The notes beneath the pieces were generated by a model. It was given only the letters and a program-made list of their open reading frames with translations, was not told where the DNA came from and searched no databases. The translations under genes and the position numbers were made by a program. From Malus domestica (taxonomy: Eukaryota; Streptophyta; Magnoliopsida; Rosales; Rosaceae), in assembly GCF_042453785.1 (NCBI RefSeq), contig NC_091670.1, positions 3,488,501-3,552,500 of the forward strand: a DNA stretch of 64,000 bases, in the 5' to 3' direction. This document shows, in pieces, positions 18,913-64,000 of the stretch. Within the stretch, counting starts at the first letter, position 1, and every line of letters starts with the position of its first letter.

Positions 18913-18954
18913 AATATTCCGTTAGCTAAAAATACTTCATATCATTTCCTATAG

Positions 18955-19155
18955 TCTATTTCCAAGTCTTCCTAACTTTTCCTCCACCCCTGTTGCTCTG
19001 AGCCTCCCTTTCATAGTCGCCTCTTCTACCATAGCATTTTTAGATATTCGGTTCATGTACCCAAACCATCTTTACATATTTTCTTTCATCTTATCTTCAA
19101 TGGAGACCACTCCTACTTTACCTCGGATGTCCTCATTGTTAATCCAATCATTTTG
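18955..19155 (-). pseudogene. Old RTE retroelement 3' ORF fragment
   Basis: Minus-strand translation gives NEDIRGKVGVVSIEDKMKEN, RWFGYMNRI and a degenerate GRLRATG stretch. It matches the C-terminal end of the RTE ORF at 61.7-64 kb (NEDIRGKVGVAEIEGKMREN, RWFGHVQRR). It is much more diverged than the other RTE copies, with internal stops. Confidence 0.65.
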
Positions 19156-34247: not shown

Positions 34248-34637
34248 TGTTGAATTATAAGTCTATAGCTGATTAGGAATAAATCTTAGTATGAATATAT
34301 GTATGCACTTGCGTTAAAATACCAAGTGATAAGTTGTATGGTTGTAAGGCAAGAATTGCCATGTGTTGCAATCCTACCAACTAGCTAGATGAAGGGTCAA
34401 GATTGGTTTGTAATCAGAAGAGCATCCAATGTGGTCCTAACGATTATATTCCTCCTGCACGTTTTGTGTGCTGTATGAGAGACTGAAAACCTTAATGAAA
34501 AATATGATTGCTTCTCTGTGACCTGCAGAGAGCATTAACATTCCTTTTGTGAGCTTTCCATTTTCTAACGTTCTTTTCTTCCTTATCTCATCTTCCATTC
34601 TTCCGCAATGTACCAGAAGAATCTCAGAATCACAATA
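34248..34637 (+). repeat. Copia left LTR
   Basis: 390 bases, TGTTGAATTATAAG to AATCACAATA; the final CA has decayed to TA. It is clearly alignable with the right LTR with scattered substitutions. Confidence 0.88.
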
Positions 34638-43895: not shown

Positions 43896-46800
43896 GTTTG
43901 GACATTGGGCTAGGGAATGTCCTGCTGGAAAACCAGTGCAAAAGGCAAATAATGCAAATCTGGTGAAGATGACAGGAAACCTATTTTATGCAAATAGCAC
44001 AATCACAAAACCAAAGATGAATGGAAAGTGGTACATTGACAGTGGTTGTAGCAACCACATGACAGGAAATGTGAAATTGCTTATTGATATGAGAACCCAC
44101 ATAGTTGGCAAAGTTCAAATGCCAATTGGAGACCTCGTAAATGTTGCAGGAATGGGTTCATTGGTGATTGATACAAACAAGGGCAGGAAGTATGTTAGAG
44201 AAGTAATGTACCTACCTGGTCTAAAAAATAATTTGCTAAGTGTTGGTCAAATGGATGAGCATGGATATTTCTTGGTGTTTGGTGGTGGAATGTGCAGTGT
44301 GTTTGATGGTCCATCACTGGAATGCTTAGTTTGAAAGTAAAGAAGAAAGTGAATAGGTGTTATCTGTTGTCTATTTTATCTGAAAATCAGGTTGTTTTGA
44401 AAGCTAGTGTCACTCATTCTACTGAGACTTGCACTTACACTTTGGTGGTCTCAAACAATTAAGAGAAAAGGAAATGGTACATGGTTTGCCTCAGCTTGAA
44501 GACTATAATGAAGTCTGTGAAAGTTGCCAATATGGAAAGAGCAAGTGCTCCACTTGAACTTATTCATGTTGAACCCATGAGGCATGACTCAATTGCTGGA
44601 AACAAGTATTTTATGCTCTTGATAGACGATCTCACCAAAATGACTTGGGTTTATTTCCTAAGATACAAGTCTAAAGCATTCAGTTGTTTTAGAAAATTCA
44701 AAGTTATGGCAGAACTGTAAAGTGGACTCAAGGTTAAATGTTTGAAAAATGATAGAGGAGGGGAGTTCAAATCATCGGAATTCGATCTATTCTATGAAAA
44801 AGAAGGAATACAAAGACAGTTCACTCTTGCATATACTCTATAGCAAAATGGAGTAGTGGAGAGAAAGAACATAAAGTGATTGAGATGGCAGAATCAATGT
44901 TGCATAAAAAGAGAATGCCATATCATTTCTGGGTAGAAGCAGTTCATACATCAGTGTACATTCTAAACAGATGCCCTACAAGAGCTTTGAACAATATCAC
45001 ACCTTTTGAAGCTTACTCTGGAAGGAAACCTGGAATTGCACACCTAAGAGTATTTGGTGCAATGTGTTATGTACATGTTCCAAGTGAACACAAACATAAA
45101 CTTGAGCCTAAACATCAAGGGAGTGTTTGTGGGATATGCAACTTGTGAAAAAAAGGATATAGGGTGTTTGATCCAATATCTAAGAAGCTTGTCTTGTCAA
45201 GAGACATAGTTTTTATGAAGAGGCTGCCTGGAATTAGGAAAAGAACTCAAATCATTCTACCCTTACTACTGTAATCTTTGTTTATGGGGACATAAGCACA
45301 TAAATGAATGAAAGGAAGGTGCAGACCCCTGCATCATCAACATCACATTCACCTAGAAGAGTTCTTAGTATTGGAGACTCTACTCAATCTAAGACATTTA
45401 CCTCAGGTGAATCTATGAACATCTTAAGCTTAAATGAGAGGCACACCCAAGCATTTGATCATACACCTCTGAAATAGAGGAATCTGAATGAAGTGTTGGC
45501 TAAATGTAATATATGCATCATGGATCCATAGAAGTATGAGGATGCTAAACAAGATGAGTCTTGGTTAAAGGCAATGAAGGATGAGCTGTTTATAATTGAA
45601 AAGAATGATACCTGGAAGCTTGTTGACAAACCAACTGAGAAACCTATTATAGGGGTTAAATGGGTCTACAAAACCAAGTTAAATCTTGATGGGTCAGTGT
45701 TAAAGAACAAAGCAAGGTTGGTTGCAAAGGGCTATGCACAAAAGCCTGGTTTGGACTACAATGAAACCTACGCACCAATTGCTAGACTGGATACCATTAG
45801 AACTTTAATAGCTTTAGCTGCACAAAAGAGCTGGAAAGTGTATTAGTTGGATGTGAACTTGGGTTTCTTGAATGGAATATTACAAAAAGAGGTCTATGTT
45901 GAACAGCTTGAAGGTTTTGAAGTCAAAATCAAGGAAGAAAAGGTGTACAAGTTTCACAAGGCTCTCTATGGTCTGAAATAGGCACCAAGAGCCTGGTATG
46001 GTGAAATTGACAACTATTTCTCACAGTGTGGTTTTGAGAAGAGCTTAAGTGAAACAACTCTGTACATAAAGGCAAGGGGAGAAGATATTTTGATTGTTTC
46101 CATCTATGTGGATGATATAGTTTACATTGGTAGTTGCAAATCAATGATAAAAGATTTCAAGGAGGACTTGAAAATGAAGTATGAGATGACATACTTGTGC
46201 CTTCTTCATCACTTTCTTGGAATGGGAGTAATTCAAACTAACTCAAGCATTTTCATTCACAAAGAAGTATGCAAGTTCATTGTTGAGTAAGTTTGGCTTA
46301 AATGAAGCAAAGATTGTGACAACTCCTCTTGGAACTACTGAGAAGCTGTCTAAAGATGATGAAAGTGGATATGCAAGTGAGGAAATGTATAAGAGTATTG
46401 TCGGAAGCCTTCTATATCTCACTGCTACAGGGTCGGACATAATGTGTGCAACAAGTTTATTGGCTAGGTTCATGCACTGCCCTACAAATAGACACTATGG
46501 AACTGCAAAGAGGGTACTCAGGTATATCAAGGGAACCTTGGATTATGGTCTGGAGTATGTGAAGAGAAGAACAACTTGCTTAATTGGCTACTGTGATAAT
46601 GATTGAGGTGGTTCATTGGAGGACAGCAAGAGCACATCAGGATATGCATTCTCATTTGGCAGTGGAGTGTTCTATTGGGCTTCAGTCAAGCAAAACTGTG
46701 TTGCACTCCCAATTGCAGAGGCAGAATACATAAGTGCATCAGAAGCAACAACTCAAGCAATATGGCTGAGGTTTGTATTTGAGATTTTGGAGAATTGCAA

Positions 46801-47022
46801 ACTGAAGCAACCCCACTTCACTGTGATAACACTTCTGCCATTGCTATATCAAAGAATTATGTATTTCATCAAAAGACCAAGCACATTGATAGGAGGTACC
46901 ATTTTATCAAGGATGCACTGCAGGAAAGCATCATTGATCTGGTCTATTGTCACACAGAAAAGCAATTGGCAGATATCTTCACAAAGGCTCTTGCAAATGA
47001 TTGGTTTAGACTTAAAGGGGAG
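43896..47022 (+). pseudogene. Copia polyprotein: protease, integrase, RT, RNase H
   Basis: Resumes in the gag zinc knuckle (GHWAREC, about 43901). Protease has WYIDSGCSNHMTG (44029). A pre-integrase piece with VCESCQYGKSKC follows near 44510-44545. The integrase core has YFMLLIDDLTKMTWVYFL (44610) and, after a stop, RGGEFKSSEF and QNGVVERKN (44755-44870). RT has KWVYKTKLN (45659), ARLVAKGYAQKPG (45712), YAPIARLDTIR and the catalytic YVDD (46105). RNase H has SKSTSGYAF (46626) and a final piece with HCDNTSAIAISKN and KHIDRRYHF ending at 47028. At least five stops are TAG where a Gln codon (CAG/CAA) is usual: 44842, 45475, 45529, 45844, 45979. There are also frameshifts. It is inactive. Confidence 0.88.
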
Positions 47023-47413
47023 TGTTGAATTATTAAGTCTATAGCTGATTAGGAATAAATCTTAGTATTAATATGTGTATGCACTTGAGTTAAAATACTA
47101 AGTGATAAGTTGTATGGTTGTAAGGCAAGAATTACCATGTGTTGTAATCCTAGCAACTAGCTAGATGAAGGGTCAAGATTGGTTTGTAATCAGAAAAGCA
47201 TCCAGTGTGGTCCTAACGGTTATATTCCTCCTGCATGTTTTGTGTGCGGTGTGAGAGATTGAAAACCTTAATGAAAAATATGATTGCTCCTCTGTGACTT
47301 GCAGAGAGCAGTAACATTCCTTTTGTGAGCTCTCCATTTTCTAATGTTCTTTTCTTCCTTATCTCATCTTCCATTCTTCCTCAATATACTAGAAGAATCT
47401 CATAATCACAACA
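47023..47413 (+). repeat. Copia right LTR
   Basis: 391 bases, TGTTGAATTATTAAG to ATCACAACA, preceded by the polypurine tract aaaggggag and followed by the TSD AGAAT. Confidence 0.9.
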
Positions 47414-47664: not shown

Positions 47665-47682
47665 AAATATATCAAATTGAAT
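47665..47682. repeat. Left 18-base TSD of composite RTE unit 1
   Basis: AAATATATCAAATTGAAT, identical to 52390-52407. It brackets the whole unit 47683-52389. Confidence 0.93.
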
Positions 47683-48300
47683 ACAACAACAACAACAACA
47701 ACAAAGCCTTTTCCCACTAAGTGGGGTCGGCTATATGAATCCTAGAACGCCATTGCGCTCGATTTTGTGTCATGTCCTCCGTTAGATCCAAGTACTCTAA
47801 GTCTTTTCTTAGGGTCTCTTCCAAAGTTTTCCTAGGTCTTCCGCTACCCCTTCGGCTCTGAACCTCTGTCCCGTAGTCACATCTTCGAGCCGGAGTGTCA
47901 GTAGGCCTTCTTTGCACATGTCCAAACCACCGTAACCGATTTTCTCTCATCTTTCCTTCAATTTCGGCTACTCCTACTTTACCTCAGATACCCTCATTCC
48001 CAATCTTATCCTTTCTCATGTGCCCACACATCCCACGAAGCATCTTCATCTCCGCTACACCCATTTTGTGTACGTGTTGATGCTTCACCGCTCAACATTC
48101 TGTGTCATACAGCATCGCTGGCCTTATTGTCGTCCTATAAAATTTTCCCTTGAGCTTCAGTGGCCTACGACGGTCACACAACACACCGGATGCACTCTTT
48201 CACTTCATCCATCCAGCTTGTATTCTATGGTTGAGATCTCCATCTAATTCTCTGTTCTTTTGTAAGATAGATCCTAGGTAGCGAAAACGGTCGCTTTTTG
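47683..48300 (-). pseudogene. RTE 3' end in unit 1 (with (TTG)n tail)
   Basis: The C-terminal RTE region, with SDRFRYLGSILQ and ENRLRWFGHVQRRP, ending at a stop near 47717. Frame breaks occur between 47950 and 48195. A short 3' UTR and (TTG)n tail follow on the minus strand. It shares only the last ~190 codons with the full RTE ORF at 61.7-64 kb. The join to X is at the codons before SDRFRYLG. Confidence 0.82.
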
Positions 48301-49794
48301 TGATCTTCGCTTGATTGCTCTGGTCATTAGTGTGGATAAGTATATAAATGGATAGAGACAGGAAAGCAAACACAAGATGTACGTGGTTCAACCAGGTTGG
48401 CTACGTCCACGGAATATAGGAGTTCTCATTAATTGTGAAGGGTTTACACAAGTACATAGGTTCAATCTCTCCTTTAGTGAGTACAAGTGAATGATTTAGT
48501 ACAAATGACATTAGAAAATATTGTGGGAGAATGATCTTGTAATCACGAAACTTCTAAGTACCGAAGTGTGGTATCGTCTTGACCTGCCTTATTTGTCTCA
48601 TAGGTAGATGTGGCATCTTCTCTGGAAGTACTCTTACTCCATCCAGGGGTGGTATCTTTAACTGGTGGAGATGCACAAGGTAATGTATCAATTTCACTTG
48701 AAGCTTACTTGTAGTTTCAGGCTTGGTTAAGTGCGATACAAACCATGTAGTAGGAGTCCTCCAAGTCGCCGAGCTAGGGGATCTGCTGAAAGAGGTGACA
48801 GACAAGGTAAACAATCAGAGCTCCAAGCAATCAGTCCCAGATCAGAAGTTTGATTTCGAGTTCCGGCTGATTGTTCTCATTCTCCCTATCTTGCAAGCAG
48901 CATGAAGGATAAAGAGAAGAAAAATTAGAAGAGATGATATGAGATACGTTTGCTTTTGAAAAAGTAACTTTCCACAGGCTTATTCTTGAACTGGGCTAGA
49001 AGGTTTTCTGGTTTCCTCCAGAGTATAAGGCCGACTGAAGAATTTGACGGTCAAAACAAGTCCATCAAATCTAGAGTACGTTCGACCCTGCTGATATGGG
49101 ATATTTTTGCTTTTGACAAAGTAGTGGATGTATTGGCACGTGTGCTGTTACGCTTGTCTCCACATGCTTCCTTGTATCCTTCTCACTTGCCCTATATGTT
49201 CCTCACGCAGATGCGGTATCTTCCCTGGAAGCATAAGATGTTGAGGATGAGTACTCGAGAGCAATGCCAGGTAAGTAATCAGGTAAGGGGTTCCAGGCAG
49301 TCAGTTCCTGACTGGAAGCTTGATTCCAAGTGCTGACTGATTGCTCTCTTTCTCCTTGTCTTGCAGGTAAGAACAAGGCCAAAGGAAAAGATAGGGAAAA
49401 AGCATGATATGGGATACTCTTGCTTTTAACCCTGATGATATGAGATATTCTTGCTCTGGTATAGCTTGTTTGCAGAGGTATTATTGGGGGAAAAGAAAGC
49501 TGAATATTTCGAAAGGCTTCGTTGGGAGTGCCCTCTCAGATATGAGGAGGGGTTGAGCATTTTTGCAGGTCTGCCTGTCCGTTGGGGATGGAGGTCGACA
49601 TATATAGGAGTCTTCCTAACAACAAGTAGTAATGCTATTCATTTACCCTGCTTGGTTATAGCACGGTAATGGGAGCTGCCAGCTTCACATGTTTTAACTA
49701 TGTCAGAGCACTTTGAAAAAGTGGTCTGTGGTATCTGGAAAGCTGATGTTGCGTGTGAAGATTACAAACAAGCTTTATCCAAGGAGATCTGGCT

Positions 49795-49985
49795 CTCGAA
49801 GTTGAGAAAGTGGTGCCTCTTCGGTTTTCGAACAAACAATCCTGTCGGGGATCAATCCTGCTGGGGGTCTGGCTCTCGAGATTCGGAGAGCGGTGTCTCT
49901 TCAATTTTTGAGAAAGTAATCATGTTGGGAGTCTAGCTCTCGAGATTCGGAGGGCGGTGCCTCTTCGATTTTGGAGCAAGCAATC
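49795..49985. repeat. 64-base tandem array in X, copy 1
   Basis: Three full units and a remnant around ctggctctcgagattcgg and gcctcttcgatttttgag. One unit is partly deleted compared with copy 2 (59669-59915). Confidence 0.82.
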
Positions 49986-50433
49986 TTGTTGGGAGTGTTT
50001 TCTCGAATGTGAGTAAAGGTTGGGCATGTTTGCTAGTCTACCTTGCCACGGAGCACCGAGGTTGACACACAGGGACTTTCCAATTATCCAGCAGTGGTAC
50101 TGTTCCTTTACCATTGTGGGTAATAATATGGAAGCTAGACCTTTAAAATTTATGTGTCTAAACTTTGTTAGTGCTGGTTCTTTGCTATTCTTTTACCCTT
50201 CTTGGTCAGAGCGATGTAGTGGGAGCTGCAAGCTTCACGTGTCTCAACTTTGTCAGAGAACTTTGGCAAAGTTATCTATGGTACCCATGAGCTATTGTTG
50301 CGTGTGGAAAGTGGGTGATTGAACAGTAAGATTCATGTGCTTTATACTTCACCAGAAATCTTCGACAAAATGCTCGTAATTTCCGCAAAGCTGAGTGTGC
50401 GTGTGACAGGTGCTGACAAGGCTGAAAAGTTGG

Positions 50434-50680
50434 TGCCTCTTCAATTTCTGAGATCCGCCCTCGTGGTCTCTGAGCAGCCCAGCTTTTGAGGAAGTAAGCG
50501 CCTCTTCGATTTCTGAGATCGGCCTTCGTGGTCTTTGAGCAGCCCAGCTTTTGAGAGAGCAAACGCCTCTTCATTTTCTAAGATCGACCCTCGTGGTCTC
50601 TGAGCAGCCCAACTTTTGAGAAAGCAAATGCCTCTTCGATTTCTGAGCAGGCGCCTCTTCGATTTCTGAAGCTTCGTCGA
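50434..50680. repeat. 65-base tandem array in X, copy 1
   Basis: Four units around gcctcttcgatttctgagat and gtggtctctgagcagccc. The reverse strand reads as repeats of SKAGLLKDHEG/SWAAQRPRG, an artefact of the array. Confidence 0.85.
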
Positions 50681-50808
50681 GTGCAGATTTTTATAGAGGC
50701 TGGCATTAAGTTCCAAAGCACACTTAAATCTCCACCAGTAGAAGCTCCATTCTTGCACTTCTAAGATCTTGATTTGTCCGACCTCTTCTCTCTTCAACAC
50801 CTTTGAAA

Positions 50809-51483
50809 ATGTCTGGCCCCTCCGACCGTCGTTTTGACTTGAACCTTGTTGAAGAGACATCCACGGCTTCTCCAGACAACATATGGCGCCCATCCTTCGT
50901 CTCCCCTACTGGTCCTCTTACCGTTGATGATTTCGTGATGAAGAATGATATGACCATTGCGGTGGTGGCCAGGAACCTTCTCACTCCCAAAGATAACAGA
51001 CTACTTTCCAAATGGTCTGATGAGTTGGCTGTTAAGGATTCTCTGGCTCCCACTGTTCAGTGTGCAGGTTCTGTGTCTAATATGGCCCAACGCCTATTTG
51101 CTCGAACCCGCCAAGTTGAATCATTAGCGGCTGAAGTGATGAGTCTCAAACAGGAGATTAGAGCGCTCAAGCATGAGAATAAACAGTTGCACCGACTCGC
51201 ACATGACTATGCTACAAACATGAAGAGGAAGCTTGACCAGATGAAGGAATCTGATGGTCAGGTTTTACTTGATCATCAGAGGTTTGTGGGTTTGTTCCAA
51301 AGGCATTTATTGCCTTCGTCTTTTGGGGTTGTACCGCGTAATGAAGCTCCAAATGATCAACCTCGGATGCCTCCTCCTTCTAGGGTTCTGTTCAGTACTG
51401 AGGCTCCGAATGATCCTTCTCCGGTGCATTCTCTTTCTGGGGCTCTACCGACTGCTGAGACTTCTCCTAAGCAACCTTTGTGA
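50809..51483 (+). CDS. Coiled-coil protein of segment X, copy 1
   Basis: 224 residues, uninterrupted, starting MSGPSDRRFDLNLVEE. The N-terminal third is polar and Pro-rich (FVSPTGPLTVDDFVMKND). A predicted coiled coil spans about residues 98-150, with RQVESLAAEVMSLKQEIRAL and LHRLAHDYATNMKRKLDQMK. The tail is Pro/Ala-rich with two imperfect repeats of EAPNDQP(R)MPPPS. There is no signal peptide, membrane segment, zinc knuckle or enzyme motif. I chose the ATG at 50809 over 50803 because homology to copy 2 and the leader boundary start there. It may be a gag-like protein of a retroelement; I recall similar uncharacterised apple proteins, but the function is unknown. Copy 2 has a stop at codon 26. 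Confidence 0.55.
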   Translation: MSGPSDRRFDLNLVEETSTASPDNIWRPSFVSPTGPLTVDDFVMKNDMTIAVVARNLLTPKDNRLLSKWSDELAVKDSLAPTVQCAGSVSNMAQRLFARTRQVESLAAEVMSLKQEIRALKHENKQLHRLAHDYATNMKRKLDQMKESDGQVLLDHQRFVGLFQRHLLPSSFGVVPRNEAPNDQPRMPPPSRVLFSTEAPNDPSPVHSLSGALPTAETSPKQPL

Positions 51484-51744
51484 AGGCTCCCTGTTGTTTG
51501 TTTATTTTGACTCATGTATATGTACATATTTGTAACTTATCGGCGATATCAATAAATAAGCTTTGCTTCATTTCAACGTATTGTGTTAAATACACCGAAG
51601 CCTTCTTCGCTAAGTTCTTTGAATTTTTCTTTTGTTGAAGCTTGTATGTTGAAGCTTTGTGAGTGGAGGATGTAGGTTGAGGTAGTGTTCCCTTAATTTC
51701 CCGAGTGAGGAAAACTTCTCGGTTGGAGACTTGGAAAATCTAAG

Positions 51745-52389
51745 TCACTGAGTGGGGTCGGCTATATGAATCTTAGAACGCCATTGTGCTCGGTCCTGTG
51801 TCATGTCCTCCGTTAGATCCAAGTACTCTAAGTCTTTTCTTAGAGTCTCTTCCAAAGTTTTCCTAGGTCTTCCTCTACCCCTTCGGCCCTGAACCTCTGT
51901 CCCATAGTCGCATCTTTTAATCGGAGCGTCAGTAGGCCTTCTTTGCACATGTCCAAACCACCGTAACCGATTTTCTCTCATATTTCCTTCAATTTCGGCT
52001 ACTCCTACTTTACCCTGGATATCCTCATTCCTAATCTTATCCTTTCTCGTGTGCCCACACATCCAGCGAAGCATCCTCATCTCTGCTACACCCATTTTGT
52101 GTACGTGTTGATGCTTCACCGCCCAACATTCTGTGCCATACAGCATCGTCGGCGTTATTGCCGTCCTATAAAATTTTCCCTTGAGCTTCAGTGGCATACG
52201 GCGGTCACACAACACGCCGGATGCACTCTTCCACTTCATCCATCCAGCTTGTATTCTATGGTTGAGATCTCCATCTAATTCTTCGTTCTTTTGCAAGATA
52301 GATCATAGGTAACGAAAACGATCGCTCCTTGGTATTTCTTGATCTCCGATCCTCACCCCTAACTCGTTTTGGCCTCCATTTGCACTGAA
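51745..52389 (-). pseudogene. RTE C-terminal region in unit 1, 5' truncated
   Basis: Ends IHIADPTQ at the stop at 51745. It contains MRENRLRWFGHVQRRPTDAP and GRGRPRKTLEETLRKDLEY. A stop interrupts RYL*SILQ near 52303. Homology to the full RTE ends at 52389, exactly at the TSD, so this is the unit's 5' truncation point. At its 3' end it runs into X without the 3' UTR and (TTG)n tail. Confidence 0.85.
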
Positions 52390-52407
52390 AAATATATCAA
52401 ATTGAAT
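52390..52407. repeat. Right 18-base TSD of composite RTE unit 1
   Basis: AAATATATCAAATTGAAT, identical to 47665-47682. Confidence 0.93.
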
Positions 52408-57561: not shown

Positions 57562-58182
57562 ACAACAACAACAATAACAACAACAAAGCCTTTTCCCACT
57601 AAGTGGGGTCGGCTATATGAATCCTAGAACGCTATTGCGCTCGGTTTTGTGTCATGTCCTCCGTTAGATTCGAGTACTCTAAGTCTTTTCTTAGGGTCTC
57701 TTCCAAAGTTTTCCTAGGTCTTCCTCTACCCCTTCGACCCTGAACCTCTGTCCCGTAGTCACATCTTCGAACCGGAGCGTCAGTAGGCCTTCTTTGCACA
57801 TGTCCAAACCACCGTAACCGATTTTCTCTCATCTTTCCTTCAATTTCGGCTACTCCTACTTTACCTCGGATATCCTTACTCCCAATCTTATCCTTTCTCG
57901 TGTGCCCACACATCCCACGAAGCATCCTCATCTCCGCTACACCCATTTTGTGTACTTGTTGATGCTTCACCGCCCAACATTCTGTGTCATACAACATCGC
58001 TGGCCTTATTGCCGTCCTATAAAATTTTCCTTTGAGCTTCAGTGGCCTACAACGGTCACACAACACGCCGGATGCACTCTTACACTTCATCCATCCAGCT
58101 TGTATTCTATGGTTGAGATCTCCATCTAATTCTCCGTTCTCTTGCAAGATAGATCCTAGGTAGCGAAAACGGTCGCTTTTTG
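57562..58182 (-). pseudogene. RTE 3' end in unit 2
   Basis: An ORF opens inside X at 58273 (MNHVHLVFAFLSLSIYILIH) and crosses the X-RTE junction in frame (NLAKITKSDRFRYLGSILQE). It continues to a TAG at 57632 where the other copies have Trp (RAQW). Unit 1 has the same in-frame junction but more breaks downstream. The tail is (TTG)n. Confidence 0.8.
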
Positions 58183-59668
58183 TGATCTTCGCTAGATTGC
58201 TCCGGTCATTAGTGTGGATAAGTATATAAATGGATAGAGAGAGGAAAGCAAACACAAGATGTACGTGGTTCACCCAGATTGGCTACGTCCACGAAATAGA
58301 GGAGTTCTCATTAATTGTGAAGGGTTTACACAAGTACATAGGTTCAAGCTCTCCTTTAGTGAGTACAAGTGAATGATTTAGTACAAATGACATTAGGAAA
58401 TATTATGGGAGAATGATCTCGTAATCACGAAACTTCTAAGTACCGGAGTGTGGTATTGTCTTGACTTGCCTTATCTGTCTCATAGGTAGATGTGGCATCT
58501 TCTCTGGAAGTACTCTTCCTCCATCCAGGGGTGGTATCTTTAACTGGTGGAGATGCACAAGGTAATGTATCAATTTCACTTGAAGCTTACTTGTAGTTTC
58601 AGACTTGGTCAAGCGCGATACAAACCATGTAGTAGGAGTCCCCCAAGTCGCCGAGCTAGGGGATCTGCTGAAAGAGGTGACAGACAAGGTAAGCAATCAG
58701 AGCTCCAAGCAATCAGTCCCAGATCAGAACTTTGATTTCGAGTTCCGGCTGATTATTCACATTCTCTCTGTCTTGCAAGCAGCATGAAGGATAAAGAGAA
58801 GAAAAATGAGAAGAGATAATATGGGATACTTTTGCTTTTGAAGAAGTAACTTTCCACAGGCTTATTCTTGAACTGGGCTGGAGGGTTTTCTGGTTTCCTT
58901 CAGATTATAAGGCCGATTGAAGAATTTGACGGTCAAAACAAGTCCATCAAATCTAGAGTACGTTCGACCCTGCTGATATGGGATACTTTTTCTTTTGACA
59001 GAGTAGTGGATGTATCGGCACGTGTGCTGTTACGCTTATCTCCACATGCATCCTTGTATCCTTCTCACTTGCCCTATCTGTTCCTCAGGCAGATGCGGTA
59101 TCTTCCCTGGAAGCATAAGATGTTGAAGATGAGTACTCGAGAGCAATGTCAGGTAAGTAATCAGGTAAGGGGTTCCAGGCAGTCAGTTCCTGACTAGAAG
59201 CTTGATTTCAAGTGTTGACTGATTGCTCTCTTTCTCCTTATCTTGCAGGTAAGAACAAGGCCAAAGGAAAAAGCAGGGAAAAAGCATGATATGGAATACT
59301 CTTGCTTTTAACCCTAATGATATGAGATATTCTTGCTCTAGTATAGCTTGTTTGCAGAGGTATTGTCGGGGGGAAAGAAAGCTGAATATTTCGAAAGGCT
59401 TCGTTGGGAGTGCCCTCTCAGATATGAGGAAGAGTTGAGCATTTTTGCAGGTCTGCCTGTCCGTTGGGGATGGAGGTCGACATATATAGGAGTCTCCCTA
59501 ACAACAAGTAGTAATGCTATTCCTTTACCCTGCTTGGTCATAGCACGGTAGTGGGAGCTGCCAGCTTCACATGTTTTAACTCTGTCAGAGCACTTTGAAA
59601 AAGTAGTTTGGTATCTGGAAAGCTGATGTTGCGTGTGAAGATTACAGACAAGCTTTATCCAAGGAGAT

Positions 59669-59915
59669 CCGGCTCTTGAAGTTGGGAAAATGGTGCCTCT
59701 TCGGTTTTCGAACAAGCAATCCTGTCGGGGATCTGGCTCTCGAGATTCGGATAACGATGCCTCTTCGATTTTTGAGAAAGCAATCCTGCTGGGGCTCTGG
59801 CTCTCGAGATTCAGAGAGCGGTGTCTCTTCGATTTTTGAGAAAGTAATCATGTTGGGAGTCTGGCTCTCGAGATTCGGAGGGCGGTGCCTCTTCGATTTT
59901 GGAGCAAGCAACCTT
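59669..59915. repeat. 64-base tandem array in X, copy 2
   Basis: Four units with starts at 59669, 59733, 59797 and 59861, an exact 64-base step. The unit core is ctggctctcgagattcgg then gcctcttcgatttttgag. Confidence 0.9.
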
Positions 59916-60363
59916 GTTGGGAGTGTTTTCTTGAATGTGAGTAAAGGTTGGGCATGTTTGCTAGTCTACCTTGCCACGAAGCACAGAGGTTGACACACAG
60001 GGACTTTCCAATTATCCAGCAGTGGTACTGTTCCTTTACCCTTGTGGGTAATAATATGGTAGCTAGACCTTCAAAATTTATGTGTCTAAACTTTGTTAGT
60101 GCTGTTTCTTTGCTACTCTTTTACCCTTCTTGGTCAGAGCGATGTAGTGGGAGCTGCAAGCTTCACATGTCTCAACTTTGTCAGAGAACTTTGGCAAAGT
60201 TATCTTTGGTACCCATGAGCTAATGTTGCGTGTAGGAAGTGGGTGATTGAACAGTAAGATTCATGTGCTTTCTACTTCACCAGAAATCTTCGACAGAATG
60301 CCCATAATTTTCGCAAAGCTGAGTGTGCGTGTGACAGGTGCTGACAAGGCTGGAAAAGTAGAT

Positions 60364-60600
60364 GCCTCTTTGATTTCTGAGATCCGCCCTCGTGGTCTCT
60401 GAGCAGCCCAGCTTTTGAGAAAACAAGCGCCTCTTCGATTTCTGAGATCAGCCTTCGTGGTCTTTGAGCAGCCCAGCTTTTGAGAAAGCAAACGCCTCTT
60501 CGATTTCTGAGATCGACCCTCGTGGTCTCTGAGCAGCCCAACTTTTGAGAAAGCAAACGCCTCTTCGATTTCTGAGCAGGCGCCTCTTCGATTTTTGAAG
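60364..60600. repeat. 65-base tandem array in X, copy 2
   Basis: Units start at 60364, 60429, 60494 and 60559, an exact 65-base step, with core gcctcttcgatttctgagat. It shares CCTCTTCGATTT and TGAG with the 64-base array 0.5 kb upstream. Confidence 0.9.
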
Positions 60601-60737
60601 CTCCGTCGAGTGCAGATTTTTATAGAGGCTGGCATTAAGTTCCAAAGCACACTTGAATCTCCACCAGTAGAAGCTCCATTCTTGCACTTCTAAGATCTTG
60701 ATTTGTCCGACCTCTTCTCTCTTCAACACCTTTGAAA

Positions 60738-61412
60738 ATGTCTGGCCCCTCCGACCGTCGTTTTGACTTGAACCTTGTTGAAGAGGCAGCCACGCCTTCT
60801 CCAGACAACATATGACGCCCATCCTTCGTCTCCCCTACTGGTCCTCTTACCGTTGGGGATTCCGTGATGAAGAATGATATGACCGCTGCGGTGGTGGCCA
60901 TGAACCTTCTCACTCCTAAAGATAACAGACAACTTTCCAAATGGTCTGATGAGTTAGCTGTTAAGGATTCTCTGGCTCTCAGTGTTCAGTGTGCAGGTTC
61001 TGTGTCTAATATGGCCCAACGCCTATTTGCTCGAACCCGCCAAGTTGAATCATTGGCGGCTGAAGTGATGAGTCTTAAACAGGAGATTAGAGGGCTCAAG
61101 CATGAAAATAAACAGTTGCACCGGCTCGCACATGACTATGCTACAAACATGAAGAAGAGGCTTGACCAGATGAAGGAATCTGATGGTCAGGTTTTACTTG
61201 ATCATCAGAGATTTGTGATCTTGTTCCAAAGGCATTTATTGCCTTTGTCTTCTGGGGCTGTATCGCTTAATGAAGCTCCAAATGATCAACCTCTGATGCC
61301 TCCTCCTTCTAGTGTTTTGTCCAGTACTGAGGCTCCGAATGATCCCCCTCCGGTGCCTTCTCTTTCTGGGGCTCTACCGACTGCTGAGACTTCTCCTAAG
61401 CAACCTTTGTGA
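60738..61412 (+). pseudogene. Coiled-coil protein of segment X, copy 2
   Basis: Same length and order as copy 1 (50809-51483), but codon 26 (60813-60815) is TGA where copy 1 has TGG (Trp). The rest of the frame is open from 60864. The C-terminal EAPNDQP/EAPNDPP Pro-rich repeats and the coiled coil are conserved. Reinitiation at the ATG in VMKNDMT would give 182 residues. Confidence 0.55.
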
Positions 61413-61673
61413 AGGCTCCCTGTTGTTTGTTTATTTTGACTCATGTATATGTACATATTTGTAACTTATCGGGGATATCGATAAATAAGCTTTGCTTCAT
61501 TTCAACGTATTGTGTTAAATACACCAAAGCCTTATTCTCTAAGTTCTTTGAATTTTTCTTTTGTTGAAGCTTGTATGTTGAAGCTTTGTGAGTGGAGCAT
61601 GTAGGTTGAGGTAGTGTTCCCTTAATTTCCCGAGTGAGGAAAACTTCTCGGTTGGAGACTTGGAAAATCCAAG

Positions 61674-64000
61674 TCACTGAGTGGGATCGGCTATATGAAT
61701 CTTAGAACGCCATTGTGCTCGGTCCTGTGTCATGTCCTCCGTTAGGTCCAAGTACTCTAAGTCTTTTCTTAGAGTCTCTTCCAAAGTTTTCCTAGGTCTT
61801 CCTCTACCCCTTCGGCCCTGAACCTCTGTTCCATAGTCGCATCTTCTAATCGGAGCGTCAGTAGGCCTTCTTTGCACATGTCCAAACCACCGTAACCGAT
61901 TTTCTCTCATTTTTCCTTCAATTTCGGCTACTCCTACTTTACCCCGGATATCCTCATTCCTAATCTTATCCTTTCTCGTGTGCCCACACATCCAATGAAG
62001 CATCCTCATCTCCGCTACACCCATTTTGTGTACGTGTTGATGTTTCACCGCCCAACATTCTGTGCCATACAGCATCGCCGAACTTATTGTCGTCCTATAA
62101 AATTTTCCCTTGAGCTTTAGTGGCATACGGCGGTCACACAACACGCCGGATGCACTCTTCCACTTCATCCATCCAGCTTGTATTCTATGGTTGAGATCTC
62201 CATCTAATTCTCCGTTCTTTTGCAAGATAGATCCTAGGTAACGAAAACGGTCGCTCTTTGGTATTTCTTGATCTCCAATCCTCACCCCTAACTCGTTTTG
62301 GCCTCCATTTTCACTGAACTTGCACTCCATATATTCTGTCTTTGATCAACTTAGGCGAAGACCTTTAGATTCTAACACTTCTCTCCAAAGGTTAAGCTTT
62401 GCATTTACCCCTTCCTGAGTTTCATCTATCAACACTATATCGTCTGCGAAAAGCATACACCAAGGAATATCATCTTGAATATGTCCTGTTAACTCATCCA
62501 TTACCAACGCAAAAAGGTAAGGACTTAAGGATGAGCCTTGATGTAATCCTACAGTTATGGGAAAGCTTTCGGTTTGTCCTTCATGAGTTCTTACGGCAGT
62601 CTTTGCTCCTTCATACATATCCTTTATAGCTTGGATATATGCTACTCGTGCTCCTTTCTTCTCTAAAATCCTCCAAAGAATGTCTCTTGGGACCCTATCA
62701 TACGCTTTTTCCAAATCTATAAAGACCATGTGTAAATCCTTTTTCCCATCTCTATATCTTTCCATCAATCTTCGTAAGAGATAGATTGCCTCCATGGTTG
62801 AGCGCCCTGGCATGAACCCGAATTGGTTGTCCGAAACCCGTGTCTCTTGCCTCAATCTATGCTCAATGACTCTCTCCCAGAGCTTCATTGTATGACTCAT
62901 TAGCTTAATACCCCTATAGTTCATGCAATTTTGTACGTCGCCCTTATTCTTGTAGATAGGCACCAAAGTGCTCGTTCGCCACTCATTTGGCATCTTCTTC
63001 GTTTTCAAAATCCTATTGAAAAGGTCAGTGAGCCATGTTATACCTGTCTCTCCCAAAACTTTCCACACTTCGATTGGTATATCATCTGGGCCTACTGCTT
63101 TTCTATGCTTCATCTTCTTCAAAGCTACAACCACTTCTTCCTTCCGGATTCGACGATAAAAAGAGTAGTTTCTACACTCTTCTGAGTTACTCAACTCCCC
63201 TAAAGAAGCACTCTTTTCATGTCCTTCATTGAAAAGATTATGAAAATAACCTCTCCATCTGTCTTTAACCGCGTTCTCTGTAGCAAAAACCTTTCCATCC
63301 TCATCCTTGATGCACCTCACTTGGTTTAGGTTCCTTGTCTTCTTTTCCCTTGCTCTAGCTAGTTTATAGATATCCAACTCTCCTTCTTTGGTATCTAGTC
63401 GCTTATACATATCGTCATAAGCCGCTAACTTAGCTTCTCTCACAGCTTTCTTCGCCTCTTGCTTTGCTTTTCTATACCTTTCACCATTTTCATCAGTCCT
63501 ATCCTTGTATAAGGCTTTACAACATTCCTTCTTAGCCTTCACCTTCGTTTGTACCTCCTCATTCCACCACCAAGATTCCTTTTGGTGTGGGGCAAAGCCC
63601 TTGGACTCTCCTAATACCTCTTTTGCTACTTTTCGGATACAACTAGCCATGGAATCCCACATTTGGCTAGCTTCCCCCTCTTTATCCCACACACACTGGG
63701 TGATTAATTTCTCTTTGAAAGTGGCTTGTTTTTCTTCTTTTAGATTCCACCATCTAGTCCTTGGGCACTTCCAAGTCTTGTTCTTTTTTCTCACTCTTTT
63801 GATATGTACATCTATCACCAACAAGCGATGTTGATTAGCCACGCTCTCTCGTGGTATAACTTTGCAATCCTTACAAGTTATACGATCCCCTTTCCTCATT
63901 AGAAGAAAATCTATTTGTGTTTTTGACGACCCACTTTTGTAGGTGATCACATGTTCTTCTCTCTTCTTAAAGAAGGTGTTGGCTAAGAAGAGATCATATG
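61674..64000 (-). pseudogene. RTE-clade endonuclease/reverse transcriptase ORF, partial
   Basis: The frame is open from the window edge to 62346 and resumes to the stop at 61674. The upstream end carries the tail of the AP-endonuclease domain ([19 protein letters not shown] near 63945). RT motifs are [19 protein letters not shown] (about 62720), [17 protein letters not shown] (about 62540) and the catalytic FADD in [14 protein letters not shown] (about 62450). The C-terminal region has SDRFRYLGSILQKNGELDG, HMMCGHTRKDK-like Cys/His residues and RLRWFGHVQRRP. Only one defect is seen in 2.3 kb: a TGA at about 62346-62348 (RLS*SKTEYME) where Arg (CGA) is expected. It is otherwise near-intact and therefore young. 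It encodes the enzyme type that copies such elements by target-primed reverse transcription. The rest of the endonuclease lies beyond the window. Confidence 0.85.

What the first reader, a model, noticed from the sequence alone, without database searches (positions are those of the whole stretch)
47665..52407. A LINE-type unit mobilised a 3.4 kb foreign segment: RTE-X-RTE tail bracketed by one 18-base TSD
The 18 bases AAATATATCAAATTGAAT at 47665-47682 recur exactly at 52390-52407. Between them, in minus-strand order, are a 5'-truncated RTE ORF end, 3.44 kb of unrelated sequence X, a second RTE 3' end, and a (TTG)n tail. Truncated 5' end, simple-repeat tail and a long TSD are the marks of RTE target-primed reverse transcription, so the transcript already contained X. 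A simple insertion of X into an RTE does not fit, because about 600 bases of RTE sequence lie on both sides of X. Read-through past a weak RTE end into X and on to a second RTE tail, or template switching, could have built it.
Basis: partly seen in the sequence, partly recalled or inferred. Interest (0 to 1): 0.88.

Follow-up and report, generated by a model that had tools for sequence, protein, structure and literature searches.

The report
Apple LINE carrying LTR-retrotransposon piece
A jumping gene in what appears to be an apple genome has a 3.4-4.5 kb piece of a different kind of jumping gene built into its tail, and copies of this two-in-one element sit at more than two thousand places, showing how one transposon family can absorb part of another and still spread.

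Summary
At 47683-52389 lies an insertion flanked by an exact 18-bp target duplication: RTE end (B arm), 3.4 kb of X, RTE end (A arm), (TTG)n tail. It is one 5'-truncated copy of a large chimeric LINE family; a second, longer copy starts at 57565. Junction patterns count 2,500 (X/A) and 2,364 (X/B) places in the 651-Mb assembly, reversed patterns none. The copies read have different flanks and 5' ends; 5 of 15 show target duplications of at least 12 nt. The longest encode endonuclease plus reverse transcriptase; three differ by 0.1% over 3.3 kb. X is the 3' part (antisense-ORF region plus damaged 3' LTR) of a roughly 12.5-kb Ty3/gypsy retrotransposon, same sense as the RTE. In four sampled copies the X/A junction is the exact LTR terminus inside the RTE ORF, so the LTR element had once inserted into an RTE. 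The X/B junction lies on a 10-nt microhomology; I favour a template switch to a full RTE RNA. In the copies sampled A and B arms form separate clades, as expected from one founding. Not shown: the founding step itself, and any advantage from X.

The parts
47665..47682 (.). target-site duplication, tail side (18 bp)
   Evidence: exact match with 52390-52407
47683..47704 (-). (TTG)n tail of the LINE
   Evidence: sequence; other copies have tails of other lengths
47705..48296 (-). A arm: last ~590 nt of the RTE (ORF end, very short 3' UTR), short form
   Evidence: 92.6% to B arm; the A arms sampled form one clade
48288..48317 (.). X/A junction (short form); edge at a TTTG microhomology 48297-48300
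   Evidence: pattern found 2,500 times in the assembly; longer forms
48297..48536 (-). remnant of the 3' LTR of the Ty3/gypsy parent (outer 50 nt and inner part missing)
   Evidence: alignment to L035/L038; LTR pair in L038/L056
48536..48539 (.). join of a ~290-nt deletion relative to the parent
   Evidence: join pattern found 2,829 times against 6,864 for the X-ORF start
48539..51745 (-). X proper: region between pol and 3' LTR of the Ty3/gypsy parent, same sense as the RTE
50435..50647 (.). 65-bp tandem repeats inside X
50809..51483 (+). 224-aa X-ORF, antisense to the RTE and to the parent's pol
   Evidence: no early stop from codon 2 on in 20 of 30 copies
51746..51755 (.). X/B junction: CACTGAGTGG, the parent's own sequence, against CACTAAGTGG at the RTE end (10-nt microhomology, one mismatch)
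   Evidence: junction pattern 2,364 times; uninterrupted parent sequence 1,815 times
51746..52389 (-). B arm: end of the RTE ORF (..HIADPTQ*), 5'-truncated at 52389 in this copy
   Evidence: other copies continue upstream into the ORF
52390..52407 (.). target-site duplication, 5' side (18 bp)
57565..64000 (-). second copy of the chimera: tail, A arm, X, B arm and RTE ORF (RVT_1 in 62346-63998, one in-frame stop at its lower end) running out of the window

Best explanation
The finding is a 5'-truncated copy of a chimeric, LINE-type retrotransposon family. From its 5' end the family consists of a full RTE-like element (endonuclease-RT ORF), 3.4-4.5 kb from the 3' part of a Ty3/gypsy LTR retrotransposon in the same sense, a second copy of the RTE 3' end, and a (TTG)n tail. 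X acts as a giant 3' UTR: the ORF is kept (one added glutamine before a new stop) and the 3' end from which target-primed reverse transcription starts is kept, so the unit replicates as a LINE. Shown: the anatomy, X's origin, dispersal to new sites, recent activity; single origin is shown for the copies sampled. Inferred founding: (1) the LTR element inserted by its integrase into an RTE copy, in the same orientation; (2) an RNA running through X and the 3' LTR into that RTE's 3' end was reverse transcribed from the RTE tail; (3) at CACTNAGTGG the RT switched to a full RTE mRNA and copied it to the 5' end. Later deletions removed the inner part of the 3' LTR with its TATA-like box and the stretch beside it, and trimmed the A arm.
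For: Dispersal: X/A 2,500 (short) + 165 (long) and X/B 2,364 places, reversed-pattern control 0; 18 of 27 listed C1 X/A places have X/B 3.4-4.5 kb away in the same orientation, against a cut-off X/B list. LINE behaviour: flanks and tails differ; varied 5' ends; target duplications >=12 nt in 5 of 15 copies against 1 of 210 mispaired flanks; one 5' inversion. Coding: Exo_endo_phos and RVT_1; of four full-length or nearly full-length copies whose frames were read, one is uninterrupted over 1,057 codons. Recent: three copies on three contigs differ by 0.1% over about 3.3 kb, with different flanks. Origin: A arms one clade (0.989; 0.969 with further forms and two plain RTEs added), arms not homogenised within copies. 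X: RNase H/integrase ORFs on the matching strand, 516-bp LTRs 99.0% alike, TG..CA, 5-bp duplication AGCAT. Insertion step..CTTAAGGAT|TGTTGATGCAC.., RTE ORF joined to the exact LTR terminus, in 4 of 10 sampled tails. Switch: 10-nt shared word at X/B.
Against: 10 of 15 copies show no target duplication of 12 nt or more (one of them has 11 nt). The template switch itself is not shown: a DNA deletion at the same microhomology gives the same junction. The other side of the primary LTR insertion (LTR followed by AGGATGAGCC) could not be searched; every request was answered 'busy', and so was the count of the LTR-terminus form of X/A. No empty site was found in sequence already held, and no second genome was available. 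RTE clade and gypsy lineage were not placed by phylogeny. Of the four full-length frames read, three are broken.
Confidence: 0.72

Rival explanations
1. Nested insertions and read-through: a complete RTE inserted into the LTR element upstream of X, a second RTE copy bore the LTR element or sat at its 3' end, a DNA deletion at CACTNAGTGG removed the first RTE's tail, and transcription from the first RTE ran to the second tail. Afterwards the family spread exactly as in the best explanation.
For: The junction microhomology also fits an end-joining deletion; deletions at short repeats are common in this family (about 131 nt and 100 nt in the A arm, 133 nt in X, 227 nt at X/A).
Against: Needs two insertions plus a deletion where the template switch needs one insertion plus one jump; no locus with an RTE tail upstream of X was seen, though only a few dozen loci were read.
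Confidence: 0.27
2. Copies spread by segmental duplication or recombination between repeats, not by retrotransposition.
For: Five long-form X/A places on C4 are spaced by about 32 kb, so some copies may ride in a tandem duplication.
Against: The flanks printed differ from one another, truncation points differ, target duplications in 5 of 15.
Confidence: 0.02
3. The two RTE arms act as long terminal repeats and the unit moves as an LTR-like or Penelope-like element.
For: Direct repeats of about 600 nt at both ends of the unit as seen in the window.
Against: Arms within a copy differ by 5-8% while same-side arms of different copies cluster, so they are not renewed at each jump; other copies run on past B into the RTE ORF; target duplications score 16-21 nt rather than 5.
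Confidence: 0.01

Closest known systems
RTE-clade LINEs of plants (clade features recalled)
   Same: one ORF with APE-type endonuclease and RT, very short 3' UTR ending in (TTG)n, 5' truncation, target duplications of varied length
   Different: 3.4-4.5 kb of an LTR retrotransposon sits between ORF and tail, and the last 0.6-1 kb of the RTE is present twice
Tripartite chimeric retropseudogenes made by LINE template switching (Magnaporthe grisea WEIRD/Mg-SINE/MGL; PMC2104539, abstract and section 8 read)
   Same: three parts fused, LINE end at the 3' side, flanking target duplication, ascribed to two template switches
   Different: that abstract reports one tripartite element and 33 bipartite ones; here the 5' part is a coding RTE and the chimera has multiplied to over two thousand places
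Chimeric LINE-1 insertions (PMC13174262, abstract and section 22 read)
   Same: LINE RNA recombining with other RNAs, speculated there to drive 5' UTR turnover
   Different: here the gain is internal and on the 3' side, from an LTR retrotransposon, and an amplified lineage is seen
Retand-type Ty3/gypsy retrotransposons (PMC11963269, passages read, most of the abstract among them)
   Different: no TRP28 domain found in the ORFs scanned; lineage not placed by phylogeny; X is a captured piece, not the element
HODOR, the 9.7-kb high-copy apple repeat (KX869746; passages read in PMC13334179, PMC6901071, PMC8558331, PMC6445120)
   Same: very high copy number in apple, called an LTR element
   Different: sequence not available here; X's parent measures about 12.5 kb (from coordinates) and a full-length chimera 8.4 kb, so identity is untested

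Membership tests
RTE-type LINE | one ORF with APE-like endonuclease and RT | tested here: met
   PF03372 E 1.1e-9 and PF00078 E 1.5e-36 in one open frame, scanned as two pieces
RTE-type LINE | very short 3' UTR ending in short tandem repeats | tested here: met
   stop codon followed by about 16 nt and (TTG)n in A arms (read by eye)
RTE-type LINE | 5' truncation and target duplication typical of TPRT | tested here: met
   varied 5' ends; duplications in 5 of 15, none seen in the rest apart from one of 11 nt
RTE-type LINE | RT falls in the RTE clade by phylogeny | not tested
Ty3/gypsy LTR retrotransposon (parent of X) | LTR pair with TG..CA ends and 5-bp target duplication | tested here: met
   one copy (L038/L056): 516-bp LTRs 99.0% alike, AGCAT on both sides
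Ty3/gypsy LTR retrotransposon (parent of X) | pol with RNase H followed by integrase | tested here: met
   RT_RNaseH, RVT_3, Integrase_H2C2, rve in two copies; in L038 rve is below its curated cut-off, in L039 above it
Retand lineage | long pol-3'LTR region with antisense ORF and tandem repeats | tested here: met
   about 5.4 kb between integrase ORF and LTR in L038 (coordinates); antisense X-ORF; 65-bp repeats
Retand lineage | antisense ORF with TRP28 domain (PF04195) | tested here: not met
   no such match in the X-ORF or two further antisense ORFs; not every ORF was scanned
HODOR | sequence identity to KX869746 | not testable with these tools
   sequence not held
Template-switch chimera | parts joined at microhomology, whole unit within one target duplication | tested here: met
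   10-nt word at X/B, 18-bp duplication
Template-switch chimera | RNA-level rather than DNA-level joining | tested here: inconclusive
   a DNA deletion at the same word gives the same junction

The most novel reading that the evidence does not exclude
An autonomous LINE took over the 3' regulatory module of a gypsy retrotransposon and profited from it: the captured segment, with its antisense ORF and LTR-derived sequence, helped the chimeric lineage outrun the plain RTE, making this a lasting new body plan (LINE with an LTR-element-derived 3' module) rather than a passenger carried along.
Probability: 0.2. Interest if true: 0.8.

Novelty: new variant of a known kind. Interest (0 to 1): 0.62.

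Why it matters
LINE template-switch chimeras are usually read as one-off dead insertions. Here a chimera between the two great retrotransposon classes kept its coding part and spread to more than two thousand places; by separate pattern counts, not matched place by place, X/A junctions (2,665) equal about two thirds of the RTE-tail hits (4,143). Stages of module capture can be read from surviving copies: exact LTR terminus in the RTE, then trims, then repeat expansion. It makes testable whether LINEs can gain function from LTR elements. It may also confuse repeat and gene annotation of apple: the unit has long direct repeats and a LINE RT, and its antisense X-ORF is deposited in large numbers as 'hypothetical protein'.

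Tried and rejected
Selection on the X-ORF: pooled pN/pS 0.53 in 30 copies, but shared variable sites by codon position (9/5/13, 32 rows) are not clearly different from a non-coding X control (8/8/11, 22 rows), while the RTE arm shows 17/11/30 (43 rows, A and B mixed). No claim of selection is made. The script reported 0 of 30 'intact' because its query began one codon after the ATG; 20 of 30 have no stop before the normal one.

Splicing as the cause of the 227-nt trim at X/A or the 290-nt loss in the LTR: the lost stretches show no GT..AG ends by eye; deletions at short repeats fit better.

First script for target duplications stripped the tail wrongly and found none; corrected. still took a wrong tail start for L009; its flanks were checked apart with no shared 8-mer. 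An early search for the duplication of L002 found only a 10-nt word away from the tail.

L064 looked like another chimera but fits an LTR element lying next to a short RTE tail. L036 holds only a fragment of X. The 290-nt join was matched in L060 and L062 but not in L059.

The arm set holds one place twice (L031 is the window's second copy again) and one unlabelled row (L011).

HODOR as identity of X's parent: not decidable without the sequence; lengths differ. Searches of the paper library (listings only, 20 of 168, 15 of 21, 10 of 12, 12 of 64, 10 of 132 and 8 of 113,120 papers shown) listed nothing that by title or abstract start describes this chimera; most subscription journals are not in that library.
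Full report
What was checked. The window is G000:C10:3488501-3552500 of a 651-Mb, 19-contig assembly.

A family, not one event. X (48331-51740) finds eight further near-complete matches, one of them the second copy in the window, and many matches of a longer variant (40 of 8,969 candidates scored, so a lower bound). The second copy (57565 to the window end) has another left flank and runs on past the point where the first copy stops, into an ORF with reverse transcriptase. Of the 29 other loci, 28 continue into RTE sequence at that point and one (L009) stops earlier, inside the B arm, so 52389 is a 5' truncation. Whole-assembly counts with up to 3 mismatches: X/B junction 2,364, X/A short form 2,500, X/A long form 165, RTE tail 4,143, X-ORF start 6,864; each reversed pattern gave 0. 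Of 27 listed X/A places on C1 that fall inside the listed X/B range, 18 have X/B 3.4-4.5 kb away in the same orientation; the X/B list is cut off, so this is a floor.

It moves as a LINE. For 15 copies I could read both ends. Five have a target duplication of at least 12 nt with at most one mismatch (window copy, L004, L013, L014, L030; 16-21 nt as scored, slack included); one (L034) has 11 nt; nine have none that I can see. Mispairing the flanks gave 1 of 210 at 12 nt or more and 5 of 210 at 10 or more. Two copies share one full-length 5' end, others stop at many places, and one ends in a short inversion (L015). Three copies on contigs C2, C11 and C17 differ by 0.1% over about 3.3 kb (two of them by 0.4% over the next 1.8 kb) and have different flanks, so the family was active recently. 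Frames were read in four full-length or nearly full-length copies: one is uninterrupted over 1,057 codons, with endonuclease and RT domains and its stop inside X after ..HIADPTQ; three are broken. A full-length copy measures 8,372 nt.

What X is. Two loci (L035 with L039, and L038) contain X's sequence without RTE arms. There X's left edge lies 50 nt inside the end of an LTR that starts TGTTGATGC, and X's right edge lies inside the element. On the same strand as the RTE, upstream of X, are RNase H and integrase ORFs. In L038 the LTR pair is 516 bp, 99.0% identical, with TG..CA ends and a 5-bp duplication AGCAT; from the coordinates the element is about 12.5 kb. So X is the 3' part of a Ty3/gypsy element: the region between pol and 3' LTR, with an antisense ORF and tandem repeats, plus part of the 3' LTR. 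That layout is the one described for Retand elements (PMC11963269, passages), though the TRP28 domain was not found. X in the chimera lacks about 290 nt that the two parent copies have, from some 70 nt beyond the inner LTR end to just past a TATAAATA box (motif recalled); that join is found 2,829 times, close to the chimera count and far below the 6,864 of the X-ORF start, so it probably belongs to the chimera.

How the junctions arose. X/A has a series of forms. In L057, L059 and L060 (and, partly rearranged, L062) the RTE ORF reads ..ACTTAAGGAT and is joined to TGTTGATGCACAAAATCA.., the exact LTR terminus; two plain RTE copies and the upstream RTE of four chimeras read ..AAGGATGAGCC.. (one ..GATGTGCC..) there. 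That is what insertion of an LTR element into an RTE gives; the 5-bp target would be AGGAT (inferred). The long form (L009, L010, L034) lacks about 100 nt around that point, and the common short form lacks a further 227 nt of RTE, joined at TTTG. That the LTR-terminus form is the oldest is my inference. These four came from ten tails that I picked because no listed perfect X/A match lay near; of the other six, two were plain RTEs, three short tails, one an LTR element next to a tail. X/B has the word CACTGAGTGG in X, which occurs with the parent's own continuation at 1,815 places, against CACTAAGTGG at the RTE 3' end; one parent copy read (L038) even has CACTAAGTGG. L060 has a trimmed X/B, about 133 nt of X being lost between two such words. 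The B arm carries RTE sequence on the 3' side of the LTR insertion point, so it comes from another RTE molecule than A.

One founding. In the copies sampled, A arms group together (11 rows, 0.989; 15 rows, 0.969 after adding further forms and two plain RTEs as outgroup) apart from B arms; within-copy A-B differences are 5-8% (nine copies), same-side differences average 4.5% (A) and 2.7% (B). The arms are therefore inherited separately, as expected from a single origin, and are not renewed at each jump, which speaks against an LTR-like role for them.

Mechanism and its weak step. I favour insertion of the gypsy element into an RTE, then target-primed reverse transcription of an RNA ending in that RTE's tail, with one switch at the 10-nt word to a full RTE mRNA. 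Double template jumps by LINE machinery are in print (PMC2104539, abstract and section 8), and recombination of LINE-1 RNA with other RNAs is speculated to drive LINE-1 evolution (PMC13174262, abstract and section 22). The rival, nested insertions with a DNA deletion and read-through, is not excluded. The direct test, a search for the other side of the LTR insertion, could not be run because the machine did not answer.

What is new. I found no description of this chimera in the listings searched. LINE chimeras and LINEs that change their UTRs are known kinds; a coding LINE with a large LTR-retrotransposon module, duplicated own 3' end and over two thousand places is, to my knowledge, a new variant. 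Whether X helps the element is open: the X-ORF shows no clear selection in the chimeras.

Noticed in passing
G000:C4:7264149, 7296208, 7328267, 7360227, 7392326 (+): Five long-form X/A junctions at spacings of about 32 kb, which looks like a 32-kb tandem segmental duplication carrying one chimera.
   Followed up: no
window 47023-47411 and 34248-34635: A 389-nt repeat, 93.8% alike, next to frames at 46232-47044 that look Ty1/copia-like by eye; possibly an LTR pair or two copies of one element.
   Followed up: no
window 18918-19153: A diverged relative (about 70%) of the RTE 3' end.
   Followed up: no
L015: The 5' end of this chimera copy is a short inverted stretch of the element itself (GGATTTACACATGG), like the 5' inversions of other LINEs.
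   Followed up: partly
window 50809-51483: The antisense X-ORF is deposited in large numbers as 'hypothetical protein' or 'unnamed protein product' in Malus gene sets (one 90% cluster has 2,492 member sequences), i.e. a transposon ORF annotated as host genes.
   Followed up: no
L016, L017, L019, L020, L024-L030, L037: A young subfamily with a longer X (extra repeat units), B arms identical or nearly so on many contigs.
   Followed up: partly
PMC11197308, section 8: That survey reports one LINE clade among LTR-retrotransposon calls of apple 'Gala' (passage read); chimeras with long direct repeats and a LINE RT could produce this.
   Followed up: no
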